Source: an uncultured archaeon
GTDB lineage: Archaea > Nanobdellota > Nanobdellia > Woesearchaeales > UBA583
NCBI GenBank assembly: GCA_937138345.1
Contig: CAKZOW010000021.1
Location: 1 to 32,484, forward strand
Direction: 5' to 3'
Length of the DNA stretch: 32,484 bases
Shown: positions 6,064 to 32,111 of the stretch, piece by piece
How the letters are laid out: each line of letters starts with the position of its first letter
Numbering within the stretch: position 1 is the first letter of the stretch
Notes under the pieces: model-generated
What the model saw: the letters and a program-made list of their open reading frames with translations, nothing else
Databases searched by the model: none
What the model was told of the DNA's origin: nothing
Made by a program: the position numbers and the translations under genes

Positions 6064-7959
6064 ATGTCAGAAACAACAAAAAAAGAAAAAATTTTAGGAA
6101 TCGATTTAGGGACAACTAATAGTTGTATTTCCATTATTGAAGGTGGAAAAGCCCAAGTTATTACAAACTCTGAAGGTGCTAGAACAACCCCTTCAGTAGT
6201 TCACATTTCATCCTCTGGAGAGAGAATTGTTGGAGAACCTGCAAAAAAACAAGCAATTGTTAAACCAAAAGAAACTGTAGCTTCAATTAAAACTCACATG
6301 GGTGAAGATTACAAAGTATCAATTCACGATAAAGAATATACTCCTCAAGAAGTTTCAGCTATGACTTTAGCTAAGTTAAAAAAAGACGCTGAATCTTACT
6401 TAGGAGAAGAAATTAAAAAAGCAGTAATTACAGTTCCTGCTTATTTCACTGATGCTCAAAGACAAGCTACAAAAGATGCGGGTAAAATTGCAGGATTTGA
6501 AGTTGAAAGAATTATTAACGAACCAACTGCAGCTGCTTTAGCTTATGGAATTGATAAAGAAAATGCACATAATGTATTAGTGTTTGACTTTGGTGGAGGT
6601 ACATTTGATGTTTCAGTATTAGAACTTGATGATGGAGTTTTTGAAGTTAAATCAACTGCAGGAGATAACCACTTAGGTGGAGATAATGTAGATAAAGTAT
6701 TAATTGATTATATTGCTGATGAATTCAAAAAAGAACATGGAATTGATCTAAAAGCTGACCCTCAATCAAATCAAAGAATTAAAAATGCTGCTGAGAAAGC
6801 AAAAATTGAGTTATCATCTAAACTTGAAGCTGATATTTCAGAACCTTTTATTACTGCTGATGCTGCTGGACCTAAACACCTTGAGATGAAAATTACAAGA
6901 TCTAAGTTTAATGAATTAATTTCAGACATTTTAGCTAAGTTAAAAGTTCCAACACAACAAGCAATTAAAGATTCAGGATTATCACAATCAGATATTGATA
7001 AAATTATTTTAGTTGGAGGTTCAACTAGAATTCCTGCTGTTCAAGAATTAGTTAAAGAAATTTCAGGTAAAGATGCAGATAAATCAGTTAACCCTGATGA
7101 AGCTGTTGCAATGGGAGCTGCAATTCAAGGAGGAGTTCTTGCGGGAGAAGTTAAAGATGTTCTACTATTAGATGTTACACCTCTATCTTTAGGTATTGAG
7201 ACTCTTGGTGGAGTTTTCACTAAAATGATTGAGAAAAACACTACAATCCCTACTAAAAAATCACAAGTATATTCAACTGCAGAAGATAACCAATCAGCTG
7301 TTACAATTAGAATTGCTCAAGGAGAGAGATCAATGTTTGGAGATAACAAAGTATTAGGATCTTTCAACTTAGAAGGAATTCCACCTGCACCTAGAGGTGT
7401 TCCTCAAATTGAAGTTACATTTGATATTGATGCTAATGGTATTGTAAATGTTTCAGCTAAAGATATGGGTACTCAAAAAGAACAATCTATTAAGATTGTT
7501 GCGTCATCAAATCTATCAGACGAAGAAATTCAAAAAATGCAAGAAGATGCGGAAAAACACGCTGAAGAAGATGCAAAAAGAAAAGAAGAAATTGAGACTG
7601 TAAATTCAGCTGAGCAAATGGTTTATCAAACTAAAAAAACATTTGAAGAAAACAAAGATAAAGTTGATCAAGGAAAAGTTGGTCCAATTATGTCTAAGTT
7701 AAATGATTTAGATGCTGAACTTAAAAAAGAGAGCAGAAATGTTGAGACTATTAAAACAATGATGGATGACATTAACAAAGATGCACAAGCAGTATTTGCT
7801 GAGATGTATCAAAATATGTCTCCTGAAGAACAAGCAAAAGCAGCAAGCGAGGCAGGAATGGATCCAAGTCAAGCAGGTGGACAAGAGTCCGGGAACGCTA
7901 ATGATGAGAAAGTTGTTGATGTAGAAGCTTCTGAAAAAGATTCAGAAGATAAAAAATAA
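6064..7959 (+). CDS. dnaK: Chaperone DnaK (Hsp70)
   Basis: The 631-residue protein is a complete Hsp70. The nucleotide-binding domain (about 8-390) has [10 protein letters not shown] (phosphate 1), [14 protein letters not shown] (phosphate 2), [10 protein letters not shown] (connect) and the adenosine motif [14 protein letters not shown]. The interdomain linker is DVLLLDVTP, followed by the substrate-binding domain and a helical lid, then a low-complexity tail rich in Gly, Asp, Glu and Lys (EKDSEDKK). It is a bacterial-type DnaK; archaeal copies are generally attributed to transfer from bacteria. No dnaJ or grpE lies in this window, so it is transcribed alone here, unlike the usual cluster. 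It has its own TATA box, a long leader and a strong 3' hairpin. Cytosolic ATP-dependent protein folding is the expected role. Confidence 0.98.
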
Positions 7960-7988
7960 ACCTAAAAAATATTATTTTTTAGTTTATT
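7955..7988 (+). terminator. 16-bp stop-spanning hairpin of dnaK
   Basis: AATAAAC-c-TAAAAAATA pairs with TATTTTTTA-GTTTATT (16 bp, one bulged C, minimal loop T). The TAA stop lies in the 5' arm. The first 9 bp would probably open to a larger loop in RNA. Confidence 0.6.
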
Positions 7989-11157: not shown

Positions 11158-11187
11158 AAAAACCTAATAAATCAAGATTTAGTTTTT
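11158..11187. terminator. Bidirectional hairpin between the surface protein and HAD genes
   Basis: AAAAAC-ctaa-TAAATC pairs with GATTTA-GTTTTT around AA (12 bp, a 4-nt bulge). The HAD gene's TGA (read leftward) lies across the loop. The surface protein's TAA is 11 nt before it. The T-run on each strand lets it serve both convergent genes. Confidence 0.55.
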
Positions 11188-11813: not shown

Positions 11814-11836
11814 AAGATAATTGCTTTAATCATCTT
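11814..11836 (-). terminator. Stop-spanning hairpin at the topA 3' end
   Basis: On the coding strand AAGATGATT pairs with AATTATCTT around AAAGC (9 bp, one G-U). The T of topA's TAA is in the 5' arm and the rest is in the loop. It lies within the topA-HAD operon and ends just before the HAD gene's ribosome-binding site, so it may attenuate read-through or shape translation rather than end transcription. Confidence 0.5.
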
Positions 11837-18053: not shown

Positions 18054-18785
18054 TTAATGTTTGAGTTTTTCTGAAATATAATACTCTAATAAGTCCTTCA
18101 AGTTTACTATGTCTTCAATATTATATTTGATTAATTTTTCTAATGCTTGCAGATCTCCTTGCTTGTATTTTTTCCAAAGCCTTACAGCTTCAAATCCATT
18201 CACATTTGCAACATCTTCTGGTCTTGAAATCCCTAGCTGTAATTCAATATTTTTCAACCCTCCCGAGTGGCCTAATTCTTTAAGTAAAAATCTTAAGTCC
18301 AGGTGAATTACATCATATTTGTAGTTTCCATGATGTTCAATAAAAGGCATATCAAATTGTTTTCCATTAAATGTTACTACAATGTCAAATTCTTTTAGTT
18401 TTTCATATGCTTCATGTAAGTCTTTTCCTTGAATATATACTTTTGGCTCTTCTCCATCATAAATACCAATTGTTGTAATTTGATGAGACCATCTAGATAA
18501 ACCAGTTGTTTCAATATCAACATAAGCAATTTTTCCTAGATCCTTTAGTTTCCAATGCTCCCTTTCTTTGAGTTTATTTTTGAAATAAGAAATGTCTTTT
18601 TCTTCATGTGCTTGCTGAGCAAAAAAAAGTTCTGTTTTTATTTTATCAAGTTTTGATTTTGGAAGGCAATCTAATTCATGATGGTTGTCTAAGAATTGTT
18701 GCCAGTTTTCAATTCCAGCTTCTTTGATTTTTTTCTCTGAAGATTCTGAAATTCCATCTATAAAAGAAAAGGTATTTTGTATCAT
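18054..18785 (-). CDS. YprB-type RNase H-like 3'-5' exonuclease with N-terminal HhH-like segment
   Basis: The 243-residue protein has an N-terminal helix-hairpin-helix-like region (FSFIDGISESSEKKIKEAGI) and a DEDD-family exonuclease core. Acidic motif 1 is YVDIETTGLSRW (Asp-x-Glu), motif 2 is VVTFNGKQFDMPFI (Asn-Gly...Asp), and motif 3 is YNIEDIVNLKDLL. This order matches the YprB/RNase_H_2 family found in bacteria and archaea. It probably trims DNA or RNA 3' ends; the natural substrate is not established. TTTAAAAATC centred about 26 nt before the ATG suggests a leaderless mRNA. The downstream 105-residue gene starts 31 nt after its stop. Confidence 0.85.
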   Translation of the reverse strand: MIQNTFSFIDGISESSEKKIKEAGIENWQQFLDNHHELDCLPKSKLDKIKTELFFAQQAHEEKDISYFKNKLKEREHWKLKDLGKIAYVDIETTGLSRWSHQITTIGIYDGEEPKVYIQGKDLHEAYEKLKEFDIVVTFNGKQFDMPFIEHHGNYKYDVIHLDLRFLLKELGHSGGLKNIELQLGISRPEDVANVNGFEAVRLWKKYKQGDLQALEKLIKYNIEDIVNLKDLLEYYISEKLKH

Positions 18786-18844
18786 AGATAATTCTATTAC
18801 TATTGATTTTTAAAGATTAGTTACTCTATGATCTAGATTATTTT

Positions 18845-20074
18845 TTAAAAATTTAATTTATATTTTCTTGTGGAAAAAACCATATATAAATATGCAATGA
18901 AATAGATTACTCCAGTTATTAAAAAACCAGAGTTATAAGTTAAAGTTTCATTAATTATTGCTCCTAATCCTAGACCTAGAATCGCACCTAAAGCAAATAT
19001 TAAATCAGATACGCTCACTACTCTTCCTAAATACCTTTTTTGAGTATTTGTCTGTATTAAGTAAATATATCTGATATATTGAAGGCCTGCAAAAATACCT
19101 ATGATAAAATGGAAAAAAAGGGCAGTATAATAATTATTTTCGAAATTTTTTAGGGAAAAAACAAATAAGAATAAAGTAATTGAACCAAATAAGTAAATAT
19201 ATTTTGTTAACGTTGACTCTCTAATTGATTGAGATAATTTCTTAATTACTGGTGATACAAGTGCTCCTGTTGCTATAAAAAATAATAAAAAACTAAAACT
19301 AGAACCTGGACTCATTCCAATAGATTGCGATATCCTAATTGAAAAATCTGTTGATGATGAAACAAAAAAAGCCGATGCAAAAAAATGAAAAAAAACTATT
19401 CCAATTAAAATTACTTTTAGCTCAATACTGTTTTTTATATAATGAATTCCTTCTTTTAATTCTTTTAATGTTGTAGGTTTTTCTTTTTTTTTCTTTGTAA
19501 TTGTCTCTTGTGTGTATTTTATAAAGACTAAAAGTAATGCTGAAAATAGATATGTAGATGCATCAAAAATTAATGCTACACTTAATGAAAATGCTTCTAT
19601 AAGATATGTTCCAAATAAGAACCCAACTAACAGAGCTATAATTTCTAATGATGCATAAATTTTATTGTAGAAAATGATTTTTTCTTTTGGAACTAAAAAT
19701 GGCATAATGGATTTTTTACAGGGTTCAAACATTGAAGTTAATACTCCAATTAAAAAAACACAACAGTAAAGATAAAGTAGAGAGTCATTGAAAAAAAGTA
19801 AAGATAAAATTAATGTAGCTCTTAAGATATCTGAGAGTATCATTAATTCTTTTTTCTTTTTTTTATCTGCTAATAACCCAAACAAATATCCAAATAAAAA
19901 TAAAGGAGCATATAATGTTGCAATTAAAAATGAAGAATTATATGTTGATTCTGTTGTTCCAATGATTGCAACTGCAATTGAAATAAAAACTGCTAAAGAA
20001 ATTTTATCTCCAATTAATGAAACAAATTGTCCTAAGGTGAGGAAATAAAAGTTCTTTTTTTCGTATTTTTGCAT
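18845..20074 (-). CDS. Major facilitator superfamily transporter
   Basis: The 409-residue protein has about 12 hydrophobic segments. It shows the MFS loop 2-3 pattern after TM2, GLLADKKKKKELMILSDILRA (compare G-x-x-x-D-R-x-G-R-R/K), and the similar GRVVSVSDLIFALGAILGLGLGA in the second half. The arrangement resembles the MFS-3/enterobactin-exporter-like branch of drug and solute efflux carriers. Substrate cannot be told from sequence. Lys and Phe/Ile richness reflects the low GC content. A TATA-like CATTTATATG sits about 30 nt upstream. Between it and thrS lies the duplicated hairpin unit at 20132-20255. Its TAA falls in a TTTTTAAAAA palindrome. Confidence 0.88.
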   Translation of the reverse strand: MQKYEKKNFYFLTLGQFVSLIGDKISLAVFISIAVAIIGTTESTYNSSFLIATLYAPLFLFGYLFGLLADKKKKKELMILSDILRATLILSLLFFNDSLLYLYCCVFLIGVLTSMFEPCKKSIMPFLVPKEKIIFYNKIYASLEIIALLVGFLFGTYLIEAFSLSVALIFDASTYLFSALLLVFIKYTQETITKKKKEKPTTLKELKEGIHYIKNSIELKVILIGIVFFHFFASAFFVSSSTDFSIRISQSIGMSPGSSFSFLLFFIATGALVSPVIKKLSQSIRESTLTKYIYLFGSITLFLFVFSLKNFENNYYTALFFHFIIGIFAGLQYIRYIYLIQTNTQKRYLGRVVSVSDLIFALGAILGLGLGAIINETLTYNSGFLITGVIYFIAYLYMVFSTRKYKLNF

Positions 20075-20131: not shown

Positions 20132-20169
20132 GAGATATAAAAATTAATATGTAATTAATTTCTTATCTC
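20132..20169 (-). repeat. Second copy of the thrS tail/terminator hairpin unit
   Basis: This unit repeats 20220-20255, with 33 nt identical without a gap (20137-20169 and 20223-20255) and only an extra AT near one edge. Read leftward it still encodes the last seven residues of ThrRS (DKKLITY) and the TAA. The match begins and ends at the GAGAT and ATCTC edges of the hairpin, so the duplicated unit is the hairpin itself. It lies 58 nt upstream of the MFS start. Confidence 0.85.
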
Positions 20170-20186
20170 CACTAAACACTAAAGTT

Positions 20187-20220
20187 CTTGTGCATTTTGC
20201 CAAAGCAAAATGTTTACAAG
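20187..20220 (-). terminator. Composite hairpin between the two thrS-tail copies
   Basis: CTTGT-g-CATTTTGC pairs with GCAAAATG-ttt-ACAAG around CAAA (13 bp in two helices with a small internal loop). It is the most stable intergenic hairpin seen here because of its G-C pairs. On the thrS transcript it would form just after the stop-spanning hairpin. Confidence 0.65.
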
Positions 20221-20255
20221 AGATAAAAATTAATATGTAATTAATTTCTTATCTC
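20220..20255 (-). terminator. Stop-spanning hairpin of thrS (first copy of the repeated unit)
   Basis: GAGATAA-AAATTAAT pairs with ATTAATTT-c-TTATCTC around ATGTA (15 bp, one bulge). The thrS TAA (20230-20232) lies within an arm and the other arm is coding sequence. An almost exact copy is at 20132-20169. Confidence 0.75.
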
Positions 20256-22194
20256 TTTCTTCAGTGATTTTCTCAACAAACTCTTCTAAGGAACAAGTGA
20301 ATTCCTCATTTTTACCGTTTACAAATTTTCTGGATCTTACTGAGACTGTATTGTTTTCAATGTCTTTGTCTCCAAGAACTAGCATGTAATTTGGTTTATC
20401 AACTTCACGAGCCATTGCAATTTTTTTACCAACACCCTCATTTGAAAAATCAGTTTCAACTCTAAATCCTAAATCAAATAATTGGTCTCTTATTTTATTA
20501 CAATACTCTTTGTGTCTATCTGCAACATTAATTATTTTAATTTGAGTGGGTGCAAGCCATAGAGGGAATTTTCCAGCAAAGTGTTCAATCATAATTGCCA
20601 TGAATCTCTCTACTGAACCTAAAACTGCTCTGTGAATCATAACTGGTTGTTCTGGAGTTCCTTTATCTGATTCAAATTTTAACTCAAATCTCTCAGGTAA
20701 ATTGAAATCGAGTTGAATTGTTGGACATTGGTGAACTCTACCTAGACAATCTTTTAATCTAAAGTCAATTTTTGGACCATAGAATGCACCATCACCTTCA
20801 CAAATTTCAAATTCTTTTCCATTTCTTTTAATAGCATCCTCGAGAGCTTTTTCAGCTTTATCCCAAATTTCTTTTGTTCCAATTGCATTCTCTGGTCTAG
20901 TTGAGAGTTCAATTTCATAATCCATTTGAAATACATCTTTATACACATAATCTACAAATTGTAAGACTTTATCGATCTCATCTACAATTTGATCCTCAGT
21001 GCAGAAAATATGAGCGTCATCTTGACAAAACTTTCTCACCCTAGTTAAACCTGAGAGAGCACCCGAGAGCTCATTTCTGTGAAGTGCACCAAAGTCTGCA
21101 ATCCTAAGTGGTAGATCTTTATATGATTTAAATTCATTTTTGAAAATTAAACAATGAGATGGACAATTCATAGGTTTTAGAGAATACTCCTGATCTTCAA
21201 TTTTTAGAGAAAACATATCTTCCGCATATTTTGCAGCATGACCTGAGATTTCCCATAATTTTTTGTTAAACATATTTGGAGTCATTACTTCACGATAATC
21301 TTGTTCTCTATAAATTCCTCTAATAAAATCTTGAAGTTCTCTATAAATTGTATATCCTTTAGGTAGAAAGAATGCCATTCCTGGTGCAAATTCATGATTC
21401 ATGAATAATTTCATTTTTTTACCTAAAATTCTGTGATCTCTTTTTTTTGCTTCTTCAAGCATTGCATAATGTTCTTCCATCTCAGATTTTTTCCAAAATG
21501 CTGACCCATAGATTCTATTTAATTGTTTATTCTCTGCATTTGCTCTCCAGTATGCTTTTGTTACTCTCTCTAGTTTGAATGCTTTAATCATTCCTGTTCT
21601 TGGCAAATGAGGCCCCATGCAAATATCCTTAAATTCTCCTTGAGAGTAAAATTGGAAACCTTTGTCATCTACTTTCCCTTCACCTGCTTCATCTCCTGAG
21701 AGATTTCCTTTTTCAATTCCTTCAATGATTTCTAATTTGTATTCATTATCTTTAAAAAAATCTTTAGCTTCTTGTGCTGAGAGGTATTCTTTTGTAATCT
21801 CAAGATTTTCTTTAATGATTTTTTGCATCTCAACTTCTATTTTTGGGAGATCTTCGTCTTGAAGTGCATCATAATCTACATCATAATAAAAACCATGCTC
21901 AATTGCAGGACCAATTGTGATTTTTGCTTCTGGAAAAACCCTAAGAATTGCTTGTGCAAAAACGTGTGCTGTTGTATGTCTTAAAATGTCTAGAGACTCT
22001 GGTGTTCTGGACGTTATAATTTCTACTTGAGAATCCTCCGTGATGGTTGTGGTTAGATCTAAAAGTTCATTGTTTGCTTTATATGCTATTGCTTGTCTAG
22101 CTAAACCTTCAGAGATTGAACTTGCAATGTCTAAACCGCTTACTTCTTTTTCAAATGTTTTTTGTGTACCATCAGGTAGAGTAATTCTTACCAT
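20230..22194 (-). CDS. thrS: Threonyl-tRNA synthetase, bacterial type
   Basis: The 654-residue class II synthetase charges tRNA-Thr. It has an N-terminal TGS domain (about 1-62), the bacterial editing domain (HTTAHVFAQAI with the HxxxH motif, and DICMGPHLPRTG with the partner Cys/His), the catalytic core with motif 2 RNELSGALSGLTRVRKF, the zinc ligands in MNCPSH, DDAHIF and VMIHRA, motif 3 around HRAVLGSVERFMAIMIEH, and a C-terminal anticodon-binding domain. This is the bacterial layout, whereas many archaea have a different, DTD-like editing domain; a bacterial origin by transfer is likely. No Shine-Dalgarno is evident, and TTATTATAAAC about 25-30 nt upstream suggests its own leaderless start 31 nt after the unknown gene on the same strand. 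Its last codons lie in a duplicated hairpin unit. Confidence 0.97.
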   Translation of the reverse strand: MVRITLPDGTQKTFEKEVSGLDIASSISEGLARQAIAYKANNELLDLTTTITEDSQVEIITSRTPESLDILRHTTAHVFAQAILRVFPEAKITIGPAIEHGFYYDVDYDALQDEDLPKIEVEMQKIIKENLEITKEYLSAQEAKDFFKDNEYKLEIIEGIEKGNLSGDEAGEGKVDDKGFQFYSQGEFKDICMGPHLPRTGMIKAFKLERVTKAYWRANAENKQLNRIYGSAFWKKSEMEEHYAMLEEAKKRDHRILGKKMKLFMNHEFAPGMAFFLPKGYTIYRELQDFIRGIYREQDYREVMTPNMFNKKLWEISGHAAKYAEDMFSLKIEDQEYSLKPMNCPSHCLIFKNEFKSYKDLPLRIADFGALHRNELSGALSGLTRVRKFCQDDAHIFCTEDQIVDEIDKVLQFVDYVYKDVFQMDYEIELSTRPENAIGTKEIWDKAEKALEDAIKRNGKEFEICEGDGAFYGPKIDFRLKDCLGRVHQCPTIQLDFNLPERFELKFESDKGTPEQPVMIHRAVLGSVERFMAIMIEHFAGKFPLWLAPTQIKIINVADRHKEYCNKIRDQLFDLGFRVETDFSNEGVGKKIAMAREVDKPNYMLVLGDKDIENNTVSVRSRKFVNGKNEEFTCSLEEFVEKITEERDKKLITY

Positions 22195-22829: not shown

Positions 22830-22855
22830 TGGAAAAACTTATTCCTGTTTTTCCA
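22830..22855 (-). terminator. Stop-spanning hairpin of the RluA-family gene
   Basis: TGGAAAAAC pairs perfectly with GTTTTTCCA (9 bp) and the 8-nt loop contains the TAA (22839-22841). Each arm ends in an A- or T-run, so on the coding strand the hairpin is followed by AATATTT. Confidence 0.65.
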
Positions 22856-24564: not shown

Positions 24565-24589
24565 CTTAAGTAAAATATTTTACCTTAAG
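24565..24589 (-). terminator. Stop-spanning hairpin of the 24580 membrane-protein gene
   Basis: CTTAAG-TAAAAT pairs with ATTTTA-c-CTTAAG (12 bp, one bulge, almost no loop). The TAA of the leftward gene lies in the stem, and the last codons (YLR) form part of one arm. Confidence 0.6.
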
Positions 24590-25991: not shown

Positions 25992-26510
25992 TTAACTCCT
26001 ATTTGCTAATTCCATTTCTGCTTTAGCTAGTTCATTTACAATTTCAAATAATCTTTGATTTACATCCCTTAATTGCTTTACTTCAATGTCTTTTTCAATC
26101 ATTCTCTCTTTTAGAAGATACATTTCAAGTTCAATTGAATGGGTTTTATCTTTCATTGATTTTAATTCAGCATCATAATTTTTTGGTTTAGCTCTTGAAC
26201 TAATTTCATTTGCGACTTCATTATGGTCTTTTTCTAGACTTAAAATGTGCTTTTTTAACTCCTTTAATTCTTGTTTTAAATCTAAAACTTGTTTATCTGT
26301 TGCAGGTAGTTCGTGGATAATTGATTGCTTTGCATCTCTTAGGTGAGTTTGAACTTCATTTGAGAGTGCTTCTACTTGATGTGCTAATTTTTGATGGTGT
26401 GTCATAAATTCATCAAAGTTTTCTCCTATTTTACCCCTCATGAAATTCAGATCTTCTCTCACTCTTCTAAATGCATCACGTACTTTAGAGAGTTCATATG
26501 GTAAATTCAT
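25992..26510 (-). CDS. Coiled-coil protein, first gene of the NTase operon
   Basis: MNLPYELSKVRDAFRRVREDL opens a 172-residue protein that is almost entirely charged helix with heptad spacing (for example LKQELKELKKHILSLEKDH and LEMYLLKERMIEKDIEVKQL). No signal peptide, membrane segment or catalytic motif is present. It is likely a cytoplasmic dimeric coiled coil, perhaps a scaffold. GTTTAAAAATAC centred about 26 nt before the ATG is the operon's apparent promoter. The nucleotidyltransferase gene follows after 12 nt. Its last codons contain AGGAG, which may help start that gene. Confidence 0.65.
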   Translation of the reverse strand: MNLPYELSKVRDAFRRVREDLNFMRGKIGENFDEFMTHHQKLAHQVEALSNEVQTHLRDAKQSIIHELPATDKQVLDLKQELKELKKHILSLEKDHNEVANEISSRAKPKNYDAELKSMKDKTHSIELEMYLLKERMIEKDIEVKQLRDVNQRLFEIVNELAKAEMELANRS

Positions 26511-26597
26511 AGTTATTTCTTAGAATAAGTATTTTTAAACTAATGGAATTACTTATGAGTTGTGTGAGATTTAGTTTGGAATAAAGAAAAAGGTAAT

Positions 26598-26960
26598 TTA
26601 TATAATTAATAATAAAACTTGATGGAATATAGAGATTTCAAATACAAATAATACTACTTTAAATCCAACATTGTATGTTCTAAATACTGAGTGCTCGTCT
26701 TGAAGAGAAGTGTAAATACTTTGAGCAGTTAAAATAAATGAGAATATTAAAAGAGATCCTGCCCATTTCATAGATTCAATTGAACCCTGAAGTGCTTGAA
26801 TAAATAACACTAATCCACCAACAAATGCTAGAAAAGATAGTGTTAAAATTCCTGGTCTAATAAATGCTCCTTTGATAAGATTTTCTTTTGTAAAATCTTC
26901 TTTGGAAAATTTAGTTCTTACTTTTTCTTTATGTAGAACTGGTTTTTTTGGTTTTTTCAT
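26598..26960 (-). CDS. Small membrane protein (120 aa) of unknown function
   Basis: A basic soluble N-terminus of about 35 residues (KKPKKPVLHKEKVRTKFSKE) is followed by three hydrophobic segments (GILTLSFLAFVGGLVLFIQAL, WAGSLLIFSFILTAQSI, and VVLFVFEISIFHQVLLLII at the very end). No family is recognised. TATTATAAATTATAAAT about 26 nt before the ATG is a convincing promoter. It lies upstream of the coiled-coil/NTase operon on the same strand with an 87-nt gap that holds that operon's own promoter. Confidence 0.6.
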   Translation of the reverse strand: MKKPKKPVLHKEKVRTKFSKEDFTKENLIKGAFIRPGILTLSFLAFVGGLVLFIQALQGSIESMKWAGSLLIFSFILTAQSIYTSLQDEHSVFRTYNVGFKVVLFVFEISIFHQVLLLII

Positions 26961-27018
26961 AGTTAGTTTAAGAATTTATAATTTATAATATTAATGTGTA
27001 ATGGACAAGGAGAAAAGT

Positions 27019-27026
27019 ATTTAAAT
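27019..27026 (+). promoter_or_regulatory. TATA box of the 27047 gene
   Basis: TATTTAAA lies in a longer run of TTAAAT repeats and is centred about 25 nt before the ATG at 27047, predicting a leaderless mRNA. Confidence 0.5.
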
Positions 27027-27046
27027 TAAATTAAATATACAATAGT

Positions 27047-27616
27047 ATGAAAATTACCTATTCTGTTGAAGAATTAGTTACACAGAGACTTAATTTATTT
27101 GAATCTGGACTTCCTCACAATACTGATGTTTTTTATACTATTTCTACTAGAAATTCAATTACGTTTACTCCTAAAAAAACCTTGATATTATCTGTTTCTG
27201 AGGAAGGAAATTACTGCGATATATTAAATAATAGACAGGAGATAAGAGAATTCTCGTTTGCAGAATATCTTTCCTCATTAAAAACTAAACATGACGATTT
27301 TCTTTCTTCTCCATTATGGGCAGAGTTGATTCCTTCTATTGAAATTAGAAAAAATTATAAGAAATTACATCAAAGGTTTAGAAATAAATTTCTTGAACAA
27401 TATGATTTGCACCCTGAAATTGAGACTGCTACATTTGACAGCAAACAACAAAACTTCACAACTAATCAATCATTATCATCTTTAGTTCTAGGTGTCAATG
27501 CAATGGTCAATGGGGGGATGAAATTATTACATCACAACTCAGAGATATATCCGCCAAATCCAGAAGGACAGCGAAGATTAGCATTAAGGCCAAGTACAAA
27601 AAGTTTTAGAAAATAA
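27047..27616 (+). CDS. Unknown 189-residue soluble protein
   Basis: MKITYSVEELVTQRLNLFESG opens a protein with mixed strands and helices. Notable parts are a beta-rich first half (FYTISTRNSITFTPKKTLIL), a basic helix (IRKNYKKLHQRFRNKFLEQYDL), a Gln/Asn/Ser-rich stretch (FDSKQQNFTTNQSL) and a basic tail (GQRRLALRPSTKSFRK). There is no signal peptide or membrane segment, and no family is recognised. The basic helix and tail could bind nucleic acid, which is speculation. It converges with AMP phosphorylase; its TAA lies inside a hairpin that also holds the stop of the relic AMP-phosphorylase tail. Confidence 0.55.
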   Translation: MKITYSVEELVTQRLNLFESGLPHNTDVFYTISTRNSITFTPKKTLILSVSEEGNYCDILNNRQEIREFSFAEYLSSLKTKHDDFLSSPLWAELIPSIEIRKNYKKLHQRFRNKFLEQYDLHPEIETATFDSKQQNFTTNQSLSSLVLGVNAMVNGGMKLLHHNSEIYPPNPEGQRRLALRPSTKSFRK

Positions 27617-27633
27617 ATAATTACTTTATTTCT
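27608..27633. terminator. Shared stop-spanning hairpin of the 27047 gene and the relic AMP-phosphorylase tail
   Basis: AGAAA-a-TAAA pairs with TTTATTTCT around TAATTAC (9 bp, one bulge). The rightward gene's TAA (27614-27616) lies in the 5' arm, and the leftward relic tail's TAA (27621-27623) starts in the loop. Confidence 0.6.
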
Positions 27634-27671
27634 ATAATTTCGTCATGTTCTTCAACATAGGTTTTTGCATA
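27621..27671 (-). pseudogene. Diverged second copy of the AMP-phosphorylase C-terminus
   Basis: Read leftward, this 51-nt stretch encodes YAKTYVEEHDEIIEIK and a TAA. The intact gene next door ends YAKAYLQEHQEVVEIKK and a TAA. Ten of 16 residues are identical, with further I/V exchanges; codon-aligned nucleotides match at 34 of 48 positions by hand count. The frame is closed a few codons upstream by TAA, so it is a fragment. It lies 35 nt past the intact gene's stop and ends in the hairpin shared with the convergent gene. This suggests that it is the tail of an earlier or second allele left behind when the present gene was brought in or duplicated. Confidence 0.75.
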
Positions 27672-27706
27672 CAAGCAACAATCAGAAATTCTTTAGCATG
27701 CAAAGG

Positions 27707-29221
27707 TTATTTCTTAATTTCAACTACTTCTTGGTGTTCTTGTAGATACGCCTTTGCATATTTAACTTTTAACTTTGATTCTGAGTAGAGTTCCATTAAC
27801 ACATCTCCTTTTTTTACAGTGTCTCCTATTTTTTTGTGTAATCTAAGACCTGCTTTTTGGATTTTTGGAGCACCTAGGATAAATGCTGTTCTTGAGATGT
27901 ATTTGTTGTGCATTGATACTATTTTTCCTGATTTTGTTGCAAGTATTGGCTCTACAAATTTTGTTTTTGCAGAGAGTTCTTTTCTTCCTTGTGCATCTCT
28001 GATTTGATTGAATTTGTCTAGTGCTTTTCCAGATTCAAGTATTTCTTTTGCAAATTCATATCCTTTTTCTTTTGGAGTTACTTTTGCCATCTCAAAAATA
28101 ATTCCTGCCATTTGAAGTGATTTTTCAAGTAAATCCTGAGGTGCATTTTCTTTGTTTTCAAGAACTGAAAGTACATCAAGAGCTTCTTGGGTTGGACCTA
28201 TTCCATTTCCAATTGGTTCATCACCATTTGTAATGATTGCTAAAATCTCAAGTCCTATTGCTTTTCCTACTTTTTCAAATCTTCTCTTTAATTCAAGTGC
28301 TTTTTTATGTGAGGAGATTTTTGCTGTTTTTCCAATTGGTATGTCAATTAATACATGTGTTGATCCTGCACATTTTTTCTTTGAGAGAATTGATGCAATC
28401 ATTTGTCCTTCAGAGTCAATTTCTAAAGGGTGTTCAACTTCAATGATAATATCATCTGCAGGTGAGAGTGAAACTCCACCCCCCCAAACTAAACAACCGT
28501 TAACTTCGTTAACTATTGAGTGCATCTGAGTTAGAGGTACTTCAACATTTGCAAGTACTTCCATAGTATCTGCAGTACCTGCTGGGGATGTGATTGATCT
28601 AGATGAAGTTTTAGGAATTTTAAGTCCTGCTGCAGCAATAATTGGAATTACAATCATCGTTGTTCTGTTATTTGGAATTCCTCCAATACAGTGTTTATCT
28701 ACTATTATGTCGCTATTTTTTTGTTTAAAATCTAATACTTGTCCGACATTAATCATTGCTTTTGTTAGTGAGATTACTTCGTTATCATTTAAACCATGAG
28801 ATGCACATGCTAGAACAAAGAAAGTTTTTGTAACGTCTGAATATTTATTTTCTAGAATTTCTTCGATAATTAATTTGAATTCTTCTTCTTTAATTTCTCT
28901 TCCAGAATCAAATTTTTTTCTAATATATTCAAGTGATTTTGGTTTTGGTGCAGGAATTAGAGAAACTCTTTTTTTTGAAGAACAGGTAAGTCTTGCATAA
29001 GCTTCTTCATACAAACCTAACTCTCCTTTTTTTAGAGTTAGATTACAATGTTTGTCACAATCAAAAACTTCTAAATCACAAATTAAAAAAGCCTTTGAAT
29101 CATTACAAATTACTTTTACTTTATCTTTAGAAAATAATGATAATTCTTTTGCATCTGCTTCATGCATAAGTGCAATGAGACTATTACCATTTTGAATTGC
29201 AAATTTTTTTACTGAAAACAT
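27707..29221 (-). CDS. AMP phosphorylase (archaeal thymidine-phosphorylase family)
   Basis: The track's start at 29227 is TTG; the ATG at 29221 lies 9 nt after a strong Shine-Dalgarno (GAGGTGA) and gives 504 residues. The length, the extra N-terminal domain (about 1-85) and the phosphorylase core identify the archaeal AMP phosphorylase rather than the shorter thymidine phosphorylase. Core motifs: VDKHCIGGIPNNRTTMIVIP (phosphate-binding loop), SRSITSPAGTADTMEVL and WGGGVSLSPADD. It cleaves AMP (and some other NMPs) with phosphate to the base plus ribose 1,5-bisphosphate, which feeds the R15P isomerase/type III RuBisCO route; those partners are not in this window. It has an SD hairpin and an upstream palindrome. 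A partial duplicate of its tail lies downstream. Confidence 0.93.
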   Translation of the reverse strand: MFSVKKFAIQNGNSLIALMHEADAKELSLFSKDKVKVICNDSKAFLICDLEVFDCDKHCNLTLKKGELGLYEEAYARLTCSSKKRVSLIPAPKPKSLEYIRKKFDSGREIKEEEFKLIIEEILENKYSDVTKTFFVLACASHGLNDNEVISLTKAMINVGQVLDFKQKNSDIIVDKHCIGGIPNNRTTMIVIPIIAAAGLKIPKTSSRSITSPAGTADTMEVLANVEVPLTQMHSIVNEVNGCLVWGGGVSLSPADDIIIEVEHPLEIDSEGQMIASILSKKKCAGSTHVLIDIPIGKTAKISSHKKALELKRRFEKVGKAIGLEILAIITNGDEPIGNGIGPTQEALDVLSVLENKENAPQDLLEKSLQMAGIIFEMAKVTPKEKGYEFAKEILESGKALDKFNQIRDAQGRKELSAKTKFVEPILATKSGKIVSMHNKYISRTAFILGAPKIQKAGLRLHKKIGDTVKKGDVLMELYSESKLKVKYAKAYLQEHQEVVEIKK

Positions 29222-30573: not shown

Positions 30574-30596
30574 AACATAAATATTTTATTTATGTT
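30574..30596 (-). terminator. Stop-spanning hairpin of mscS
   Basis: AACATAAATA pairs perfectly with TATTTATGTT (10 bp) around a 3-nt loop. The mscS TAA lies across the 5' arm and loop. On the coding strand TTTATTC follows, as in an intrinsic terminator. Confidence 0.65.
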
Positions 30597-31683: not shown

Positions 31684-32097
31684 ATGGCACTAAAAGTAGC
31701 ATTAGGTACAAAAACAGGGAAAACATTCCAAAAGGAATTATCCCAAGAAGAAGCTGAGTCTTTATACGGTAAAGTTCTCGGGGAAGAACTAAGAGGAGAA
31801 CTCTTAGGATATTCCGGAGTTACATTTACTATTACTGGAGGTTCAGATGCTAATGGTTTTCCAATGAGAAAAGATCTACCTGGAATTAATAGGAAAAAAA
31901 TTCTTATGACAAAAGGAACTGGATTTAAAGGAAAACTTAGAGGAAAAAGATTCGGTGGTTTAAGAATTAAAAAAACAGTTGCTGGTAATACAGTATATGA
32001 AAAAACACACCAATTAAATTTAAAAGTTGTTAAAGGGGACGAAGTTGTTGAAAAAGCATTCGCACCTGCTGAAGAACCAGCAGCAGCTGAAGAGTAA
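31684..32097 (+). CDS. rps6e: Ribosomal protein eS6 (S6e)
   Basis: The 137-residue protein is the archaeal/eukaryotic small-subunit protein S6e. Recognisable parts are FTITGGSDANGFPMRKDLPG, the basic loop KKILMTKGTGFKGKLRGKRFGGLR, and the preceding LGEELRGELLGYSG. The C-terminus is an acidic Ala/Glu/Pro tail (APAEEPAAAEE) added to the core of about 120 residues. It has no bacterial counterpart and is the clearest archaeal marker in the window. It is a single-gene unit with a structured leader and ends in a hairpin with its stop codon in the stem. Confidence 0.95.
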   Translation: MALKVALGTKTGKTFQKELSQEEAESLYGKVLGEELRGELLGYSGVTFTITGGSDANGFPMRKDLPGINRKKILMTKGTGFKGKLRGKRFGGLRIKKTVAGNTVYEKTHQLNLKVVKGDEVVEKAFAPAEEPAAAEE

Positions 32098-32111
32098 AAT
32101 TACTCTTTTTT
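32090..32111 (+). terminator. Stop-spanning hairpin and T-run of eS6
   Basis: AAGAGTAA pairs perfectly with TTACTCTT (8 bp, two-base loop) and is followed by a T-rich run. The TAA is the end of the 5' arm. It is the cleanest example in the window because it combines G-C pairs, the stop codon and a T-run. Confidence 0.7.

What the first reader, a model, noticed from the sequence alone, without database searches (positions are those of the whole stretch)
32090..32111. Stop codons embedded in terminator-like hairpins at about a dozen gene ends
Many 3' ends in this window place the stop codon in the stem or loop of an inverted repeat rather than upstream of it. Clear cases: eS6 32090-32107 (AAGAGTAA/TTACTCTT), dnaK 7955-7988 (16 bp), mscS 30574-30596 (10 bp), RluA gene 22830-22855 (9 bp, stop in loop), thrS 20220-20255 (15 bp), topA 11814-11836 (9 bp), HAD 11158-11187 (12 bp), membrane gene 24565-24589 (12 bp), wHTH gene 2428-2448 and 27047 gene 27608-27633. 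Weaker ones: 357-374, the 14335 gene and AMP phosphorylase itself. Counter-examples: 3685, 5894, 15478, 16162/16165, 18054, 22226, 29401. The coding tail therefore doubles as a hairpin arm, so a terminating ribosome would melt it, which could link translation to transcript ending or mRNA stability. Archaeal termination is mostly described as T-tract driven, so a lineage-wide rule of this kind would be notable.
Basis: partly seen in the sequence, partly recalled or inferred. Interest (0 to 1): 0.8.

Follow-up and report, generated by a model that had tools for sequence, protein, structure and literature searches.

The report
Stop-codon hairpins and duplicated gene tails
In this AT-rich archaeon RNA hairpins overlap stop codons somewhat more often than chance at the ends of transcription units, but as a tendency of some genes and some species rather than a rule; following one of them (thrS) led to a family of tiny gene-less DNA elements that sit right after stop codons next to a second, mostly silently recoded copy of the host gene's last codons, which looks new.

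Summary
The hairpins exist, but only 4 of the ~13 listed (thrS, RluA, mscS, dnaK) clearly beat shuffled sequence. In 36% of the genome (521 gene ends), stems >=9 bp overlapping the stop occur 56 times, against 30 when each coding tail is joined to another gene's 3' flank. Resampling synonymous codons in the tail weakens folding (z -7.9), so coding tails really do serve as hairpin arms. The excess is absent inside operons, highest between convergent genes, present in one congener (G005), absent in two (G002, G004) and in another family (G015). It is not conserved gene by gene, far weaker than the E. coli terminator signal, and has no extra T behind it: a weak 3'-end feature, not a lineage-wide rule. 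Ribosome coupling is untested. Checking thrS exposed something more unusual: 3-4% of gene ends carry a displaced second copy of the gene's last codons 35-215 nt downstream, differing mostly synonymously, with a short structured insert between. One covarying 71-nt family has 21 matches in this genome, 12 in congeners, none in 34 other genomes of the order. I read these as miniature insertion elements targeting gene 3' ends; two such displaced tails lie in the window (thrS, AMP phosphorylase).

The parts
20218..20257 (-). thrS stop hairpin (stop 20230-20232); best-supported hairpin of the window
   Evidence: z -4.6, 0 of 200 shuffles as good
20137..20169 (-). displaced exact 33-nt copy of the thrS tail, stop and hairpin arm (left copy 20223-20255)
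   Evidence: absent in the thrS orthologues of four congeners
20170..20222 (-). 53-nt insert between the two thrS tails, with its own hairpin CATTTTGCTTTGGCAAAATG
27672..27706 (-). 35-nt insert after the AMP phosphorylase stop; starts with CCTTTGCAT, inverted copy of ATGCAAAGG at the start of the tail (about 27751-27759)
   Evidence: shares AAGAATYTCTGATTGTTG with the insert after the L077 14922-17201 gene
27621..27671 (-). displaced diverged copy of the AMP phosphorylase tail: YAKTYVEEHDEIIEIK* vs YAKAYLQEHQEVVEIKK*
   Evidence: protein-level score 64; shuffled pairs reach >=60 about 0.3 times per 530 ends
22830..22855 (-). RluA-family gene stop hairpin, 9 bp, stop in loop
   Evidence: z -3.3
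30574..30596 (-). mscS-like gene stop hairpin, 10 bp, 3-nt loop
   Evidence: z -2.7
7955..7988 (+). dnaK stop hairpin; hairpins of different sequence surround the dnaK stop in five congeners
   Evidence: z -2.3
11814..11836 (-). topA stop hairpin, borderline
   Evidence: z -1.9
32089..32108 (+). eS6 stop hairpin, 8 bp; not better than shuffles
   Evidence: z -0.7, 45 of 200 shuffles as good

Best explanation
Transcription units in this genome end close behind the stop codon, and a minority of genes carry a short 3'-end hairpin there; because the 3' flank is short, the hairpin uses the last codons as its 5' arm or loop. Its likely job is to mark or protect the 3' end of the mRNA (aiding pausing or release at the T-rich stretch behind the stop, and blocking 3' exonucleases), often shared by two convergent genes. 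SHOWN from sequence: excess over swapped, shuffled and synonymous controls, absence inside operons, orientation gradient, T-rich flank from the stop on. INFERRED: the function and where transcripts end. Some stop hairpins, thrS among them, sit at insertion points of miniature structured elements that lie between the stop codon and a displaced copy of the gene's own tail.
For: Swap control 56 vs 30 stems >=9 bp; synonymous resampling z -7.9 in G000 and -4.1 in G005, opposite sign in gaps <25 nt; intergenic hairpin excess per kb conv/co/div 3.1/1.3/0.65 in G000 and 3.7/1.4/0.8 in G005, none inside CDS; T fraction rises at the stop of transcription-unit-like ends in all five genomes, much less in operon-internal ends; ends with a displaced tail more often have a perfect short-loop hairpin of >=7 bp at -20..+50 (10/19 vs 14%, p 1.5e-4; >=8 bp p 0.006; >=9 bp p 0.29).
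Against: The signal is weak (about 0.5 kcal/mol on average) and absent or marginal in G002, G004 and G015. No raised T content directly behind the hairpins in G000. No gene-wise conservation. In G000 the excess is as strong at +45 as at the stop, so the stop itself is not the target. No RNA 3'-end data were available for this organism.
Confidence: 0.5

Rival explanations
1. Chance palindromes in a 28% GC genome: A/T-rich coding tails meet T-rich flanks, and the reader picked the best-looking of 28 ends.
Against: A genome-wide excess remains under three independent controls and vanishes inside operons.
Confidence: 0.3
2. Bacterial-type intrinsic terminators (hairpin plus U-tract) placed on the stop codon.
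For: Convergent/co/divergent gradient; T content after stop hairpins higher than matched control in G005 (5.44 vs 4.42) and G015 (5.59 vs 3.56, 17 cases). In H. volcanii hairpins lie upstream of 503 termination sites and one tested hairpin terminated 59% of transcripts (PMC7237163).
Against: No T enrichment behind the hairpins in G000; arms are 84-94% A+T in this genus; the E. coli signal is many times larger and peaks at +15 to +30, not at the stop; four archaea studied by Term-seq use U-tracts without preceding hairpins (PMC8716108).
Confidence: 0.2
3. Translation-coupled switch: the terminating ribosome melts the hairpin and so links translation to transcript ending.
For: Geometry; synonymous codons favour pairing across the stop. 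In E. coli, ribosomes at a stop codon repress a terminator a few bp downstream (PMC4824070).
Against: Hairpins are as enriched at +45 as at the stop in G000; not conserved between congeners; nothing marks the stop-spanning ones as a separate class.
Confidence: 0.07
4. The stop hairpins are by-products of the insertion elements or of template switching: the arm behind the stop is copied from the tail (e.g. C14 18102, GAATACTAATGGAT vs ATCCAATTAGTATTC).
For: Inverted copies of the tail behind the stop in AMP phosphorylase, L029, L080, C14 18102; enrichment of perfect hairpins at displaced-tail ends.
Against: Removing displaced-tail ends leaves the signal intact (z -5.8 swap, -7.9 synonymous); only 2 of 20 such ends have a stop-overlapping stem >=9 bp.
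Confidence: 0.15

Closest known systems
Archaeal U-tract terminators (PMC8716108, PMC7237163)
   Same: T-rich stretch starting at the stop of transcription-unit ends; hairpins upstream of some termination sites in H. volcanii
   Different: Here hairpins overlap the stop codon in a small subset of ends and are not followed by extra T in G000
Bacterial intrinsic terminators overlapping gene ends (some do, PMC4824070)
   Same: Inverted repeat at a gene 3' end, shared by convergent genes
   Different: A+T stems, no U-tract coupling in G000, position and strength unlike E. coli measured the same way
Fungal mitochondrial mORF insertions with carboxy-terminal replacement (PMC3630166)
   Same: Inserted element between a new, diverged, mostly synonymous C-terminal copy in frame with the gene and the displaced native C-terminal copy
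   Different: Those encode LAGLIDADG or GIY-YIG endonucleases in about 1 kb; here the inserts are about 35-170 nt without a gene, in many genes of an archaeal genome, and include a covarying structured family
Tyrosine-recombinase integrated elements and casposons in 3'-distal parts of archaeal protein genes (PMC6563490)
   Same: Gene 3' ends as target, direct repeats of the gene end, element-supplied stop codon, repeated use of one site
   Different: No integrase or cargo between the repeats; inserts under about 200 nt
Group IIC introns, which insert after terminator stem-loops (Robart 2007, cited in PMC7161350)
   Same: Insertion just behind a 3'-end hairpin
   Different: No match to any Rfam family at gathering score in the loci holding four copies; direct duplication of the gene tail

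Membership tests
Bacterial-type intrinsic terminator | stable hairpin directly upstream of a U-tract | tested here: not met
   T in the 10 nt after stop hairpins 4.42 vs 4.22 matched control in G000; raised in G005 and G015 only
Bacterial-type intrinsic terminator | located at transcription-unit ends, not inside operons | tested here: met
Bacterial-type intrinsic terminator | transcripts end there | not testable with these tools
   no transcriptome data
Archaeal U-tract terminator | T-rich stretch behind the gene | tested here: met
   T fraction rises from about 0.31-0.36 to 0.41-0.48 around and after the stop in G000 and congeners at transcription-unit-like ends
mORF-type C-terminal replacement element | two C-terminal copies diverged mostly synonymously, upstream copy in frame | tested here: met
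   34 synonymous vs 31 nonsynonymous codon differences (15 without one out-of-frame case) against 11 vs 62 in neutral simulation, 0 of 2000 runs
mORF-type C-terminal replacement element | endonuclease ORF in the insert | tested here: not met
   all inserts found are non-coding and short; LAGLIDADG and GIY-YIG genes exist elsewhere in the genome
Tyrosine-recombinase integrated element | integrase gene or remnant inside the element | tested here: not met
   none in the inserts; four integrase matches elsewhere in the genome, no link shown
Tyrosine-recombinase integrated element | direct repeats (att) at the 3' end of a gene | tested here: met
   exact repeats of 18-77 nt
Known Rfam RNA family | match at gathering score | tested here: not met

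The most novel reading that the evidence does not exclude
This archaeal genus carries miniature, gene-less mobile elements that insert at the 3' ends of protein genes, often just behind a terminator-like hairpin, and bring (or recombine with) a foreign, synonymously recoded copy of the host gene's last codons and stop, so that the gene stays intact while its own tail is displaced downstream. The stop-embedding hairpin would be part of the target or product of this insertion.
Probability: 0.45. Interest if true: 0.75.

Novelty: new variant of a known kind. Interest (0 to 1): 0.5.

Why it matters
For the hairpins: it shows measurable selection on synonymous codons for structure across the stop in an uncultured archaeon, and that such structure differs between sister species, so 3'-end signals can turn over fast. 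For the tail duplications: elements of about 35-170 nt that target gene ends without breaking the gene would be an insertion strategy so far described, as far as I could find, only for endonuclease-carrying elements in fungal mitochondria and for large integrated elements; it makes a testable prediction for every affected gene.

Tried and rejected
Ortholog test for conserved stop hairpins: negative; the first ortholog listing used the wrong strand for minus matches and was redone. T-runs beyond shuffled flanks: small excess in G000 only. Rfam: only a tRNA; permissive hits at E>5 discarded. Viral contigs: no element motif. A larger element with a nuclease or integrase between a gene and its displaced tail: none in the sampled contigs; all copies lie within about 215 nt. 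Simple target-site duplication followed by drift: rejected for most cases because differences are mostly synonymous. Assembly artefact: unlikely, since the same element family with displaced tails occurs in separate assemblies (G000, G005) with gene-specific tails. Terminator-like sites by consensus: 7 vs 5.9 expected. Literature searches on displaced tails or miniature elements in DPANN archaea found nothing direct.

Full report
WHERE IT IS. The window is contig 21 of a 1.8-Mb, 162-contig archaeal assembly of about 28% GC. The only close named relative found is 'Nanoarchaeota archaeon PBR18_bin24' (73% identical thrS). Five held genomes (G001-G005) share its genus and 34 others its order. Pfam confirms HSP70, topoisomerase I, a RluA-type pseudouridine synthase, AMP phosphorylase-like and eS6 genes. 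I read 640 kb of the own genome and 270-400 kb each of G005, G004, G002 and G015, and called genes as non-overlapping ORFs of at least 90-100 codons. ORF calling is crude and the own sample is 36% of the genome.

THE OBSERVATION. At genome scale the effect is real. Joining each coding tail to another gene's 3' flank of the same class yields 30 stop-overlapping stems of at least 9 bp; the real number is 56 of 521. Block-shuffled controls agree. The synonymous control, which keeps protein and flank and resamples codons of the last eight sense codons, gives z -7.9 at transcription-unit-like ends and a slightly opposite sign in operon-internal ends. So coding tails do serve as hairpin arms, in a minority of genes.

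WHAT KIND OF SIGNAL. In G000 the structure excess runs from about -15 to +50 and is as strong at +45 as at the stop; in G005 it is sharply centred on the stop (z -6.4; 24 vs 7.6 ends at or below -8 kcal/mol); in G015, of another family, it is absent; in congeners G002 and G004 the swap test shows nothing at the stop. Intergenic hairpins of at least 9 bp are in excess most between convergent genes, less between co-directional, least between divergent genes, and not inside genes; this gradient is seen in G000 and G005 only. Flanks become T-rich from the stop on in all five genomes at transcription-unit-like ends, much less within operons, in line with archaeal U-tract termination (PMC8716108). 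The hairpins themselves are not followed by extra T in G000. As a yardstick, 64 E. coli ends analysed the same way give z -10 to -11 at +15 to +30 and only -2.7 at the stop. Hairpins are therefore not the general ending signal here. Residual folding across the stop is uncorrelated between congeneric orthologues (rho 0.06; 10 shared strong cases vs 10.9 expected), though dnaK has hairpins of different sequence around its stop in the congeners.

MECHANISM. The most economical reading is a 3'-end hairpin on short 3' flanks, helping transcript ending or protecting the mRNA end, shared where genes converge. Excess, class dependence and codon effect are shown; the function is inferred. The ribosome-coupling idea is not excluded, but the only experiment I found (E. 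coli, PMC4824070) says a ribosome at the stop suppresses a terminator a few bp downstream, with full activity only beyond about 27 nt.

WHAT THE CHECK TURNED UP. The search with thrS returned a second exact match 60 nt behind its own stop. Asking for this genome-wide: exact copies of at least 20 nt of a gene's last codons and start of flank within 420 nt downstream occur at 11 of 510 ends in G000, 5 of 274 in G005, 3 of 309 in G004, none in G002 or G015. A protein-level search finds 16 of 530 in G000 against 0.7 in shuffled pairs, 5 of 279 in G005, 3 of 317 in G004, and none among 84 E. coli ends. Two are in the window: thrS, and AMP phosphorylase with a diverged copy 35 nt after its stop. The thrS duplication is absent in the thrS genes of four congeners, so it is probably a recent insertion.

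The two tails differ mostly synonymously. In pairs found by nucleotide identity alone there are 34 synonymous and 31 nonsynonymous codon differences (15 without one pair compared out of frame because of a nested insert), where neutral drift of a dead copy predicts 11 and 62 (0 of 2000 simulations). Striking cases are C19 8618 (8 synonymous changes, stop included, in 19 codons) and C14 30448, and C4 26435 and C3 18185 with three successive tails. Both tails must have been functional while they diverged, which points to a tail that came from another lineage rather than to duplication followed by decay.

Between the tails lie short inserts of several families. One was modelled: 71 positions, 19 pairs, nine with compensatory changes on both sides. 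It has 21 matches in G000, 4 in G003, 4 in G005, 3 in G004, 1 in G001, 0 in G002 and 0 in 34 genomes of other families at E <= 0.001. All 13 strong copies in G000 whose flanks I could read lie between a stop codon and a copy of that gene's tail; among congener copies, one has a clear displaced tail (L124), one a possible five-codon copy (L129), and one none (L161). No insert encodes a protein, no larger element was seen between tails, and no Rfam family matches at gathering score. Ends with a displaced tail have a perfect short-loop hairpin near the stop more often than other ends (10/19 vs 14% at >=7 bp, p 1.5e-4; weaker at >=8 bp and not significant at >=9 bp). Removing these ends does not remove the general hairpin signal, so hairpins and elements are linked but not the same thing.

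COMPARISON. The architecture is the one reported for endonuclease-carrying mobile ORFs in fungal mitochondria (PMC3630166): a diverged donor C-terminus in frame, the element, then the displaced native C-terminus. Large archaeal elements also integrate in 3'-distal parts of protein genes (PMC6563490), and group IIC introns insert behind terminators (cited in PMC7161350). What I could not find described is a gene-less element of about 35-170 nt doing this at about 3-4% of gene ends. How it moves is open; recombination in trans by a host or foreign recombinase, or homology-driven transfer between species with the displaced tail as second homology arm, are guesses.

VERDICT. Its best single case led to an insertion phenomenon that deserves more attention than the hairpins.

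Noticed in passing
window 20137-20257 and 27621-27760; own-genome loci L007, L021, L042, L078, L005, L040, L029, L080, L077, L198, L202-L206: Short structured inserts between a gene's stop codon and a displaced, mostly synonymously diverged copy of the gene's own tail; one covarying 71-nt family specific to the genus.
   Followed up: partly
L006+L091 (C4) 26435-27172 and L005+L090 (C3) 18185-19831: Three successive recoded tails behind one gene, suggesting repeated insertion at the same gene end; the C3 gene holds a GIY-YIG domain.
   Followed up: partly
G005: L128 about 1445-1650, L129 6095 gene end, L124 10571 gene end: A two-hairpin motif (about ACTTTGTGAAA..TTTCACAACGGCTTAGAAATTT..AAATTTCTTG) recurring at displaced tails in G005, once nested inside a displaced tail.
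   Followed up: no
L030 (C29) 3420 gene end and L089 (C29) 53177 gene end: Two displaced-tail inserts share GCTGTGGGTG..TTCAGCAGAAGCAC, a further insert family.
   Followed up: no
L007 3646-4842 end (G000) and its match in G002: Very stable stop hairpins (-18 kcal/mol) with different sequences behind permease genes that are only 27% identical.
   Followed up: no
operon-internal gene ends (gap <25 nt), G000: Slightly less structure across the stop than controls (z +2 to +3), as expected if the next gene's start must stay open.
   Followed up: partly
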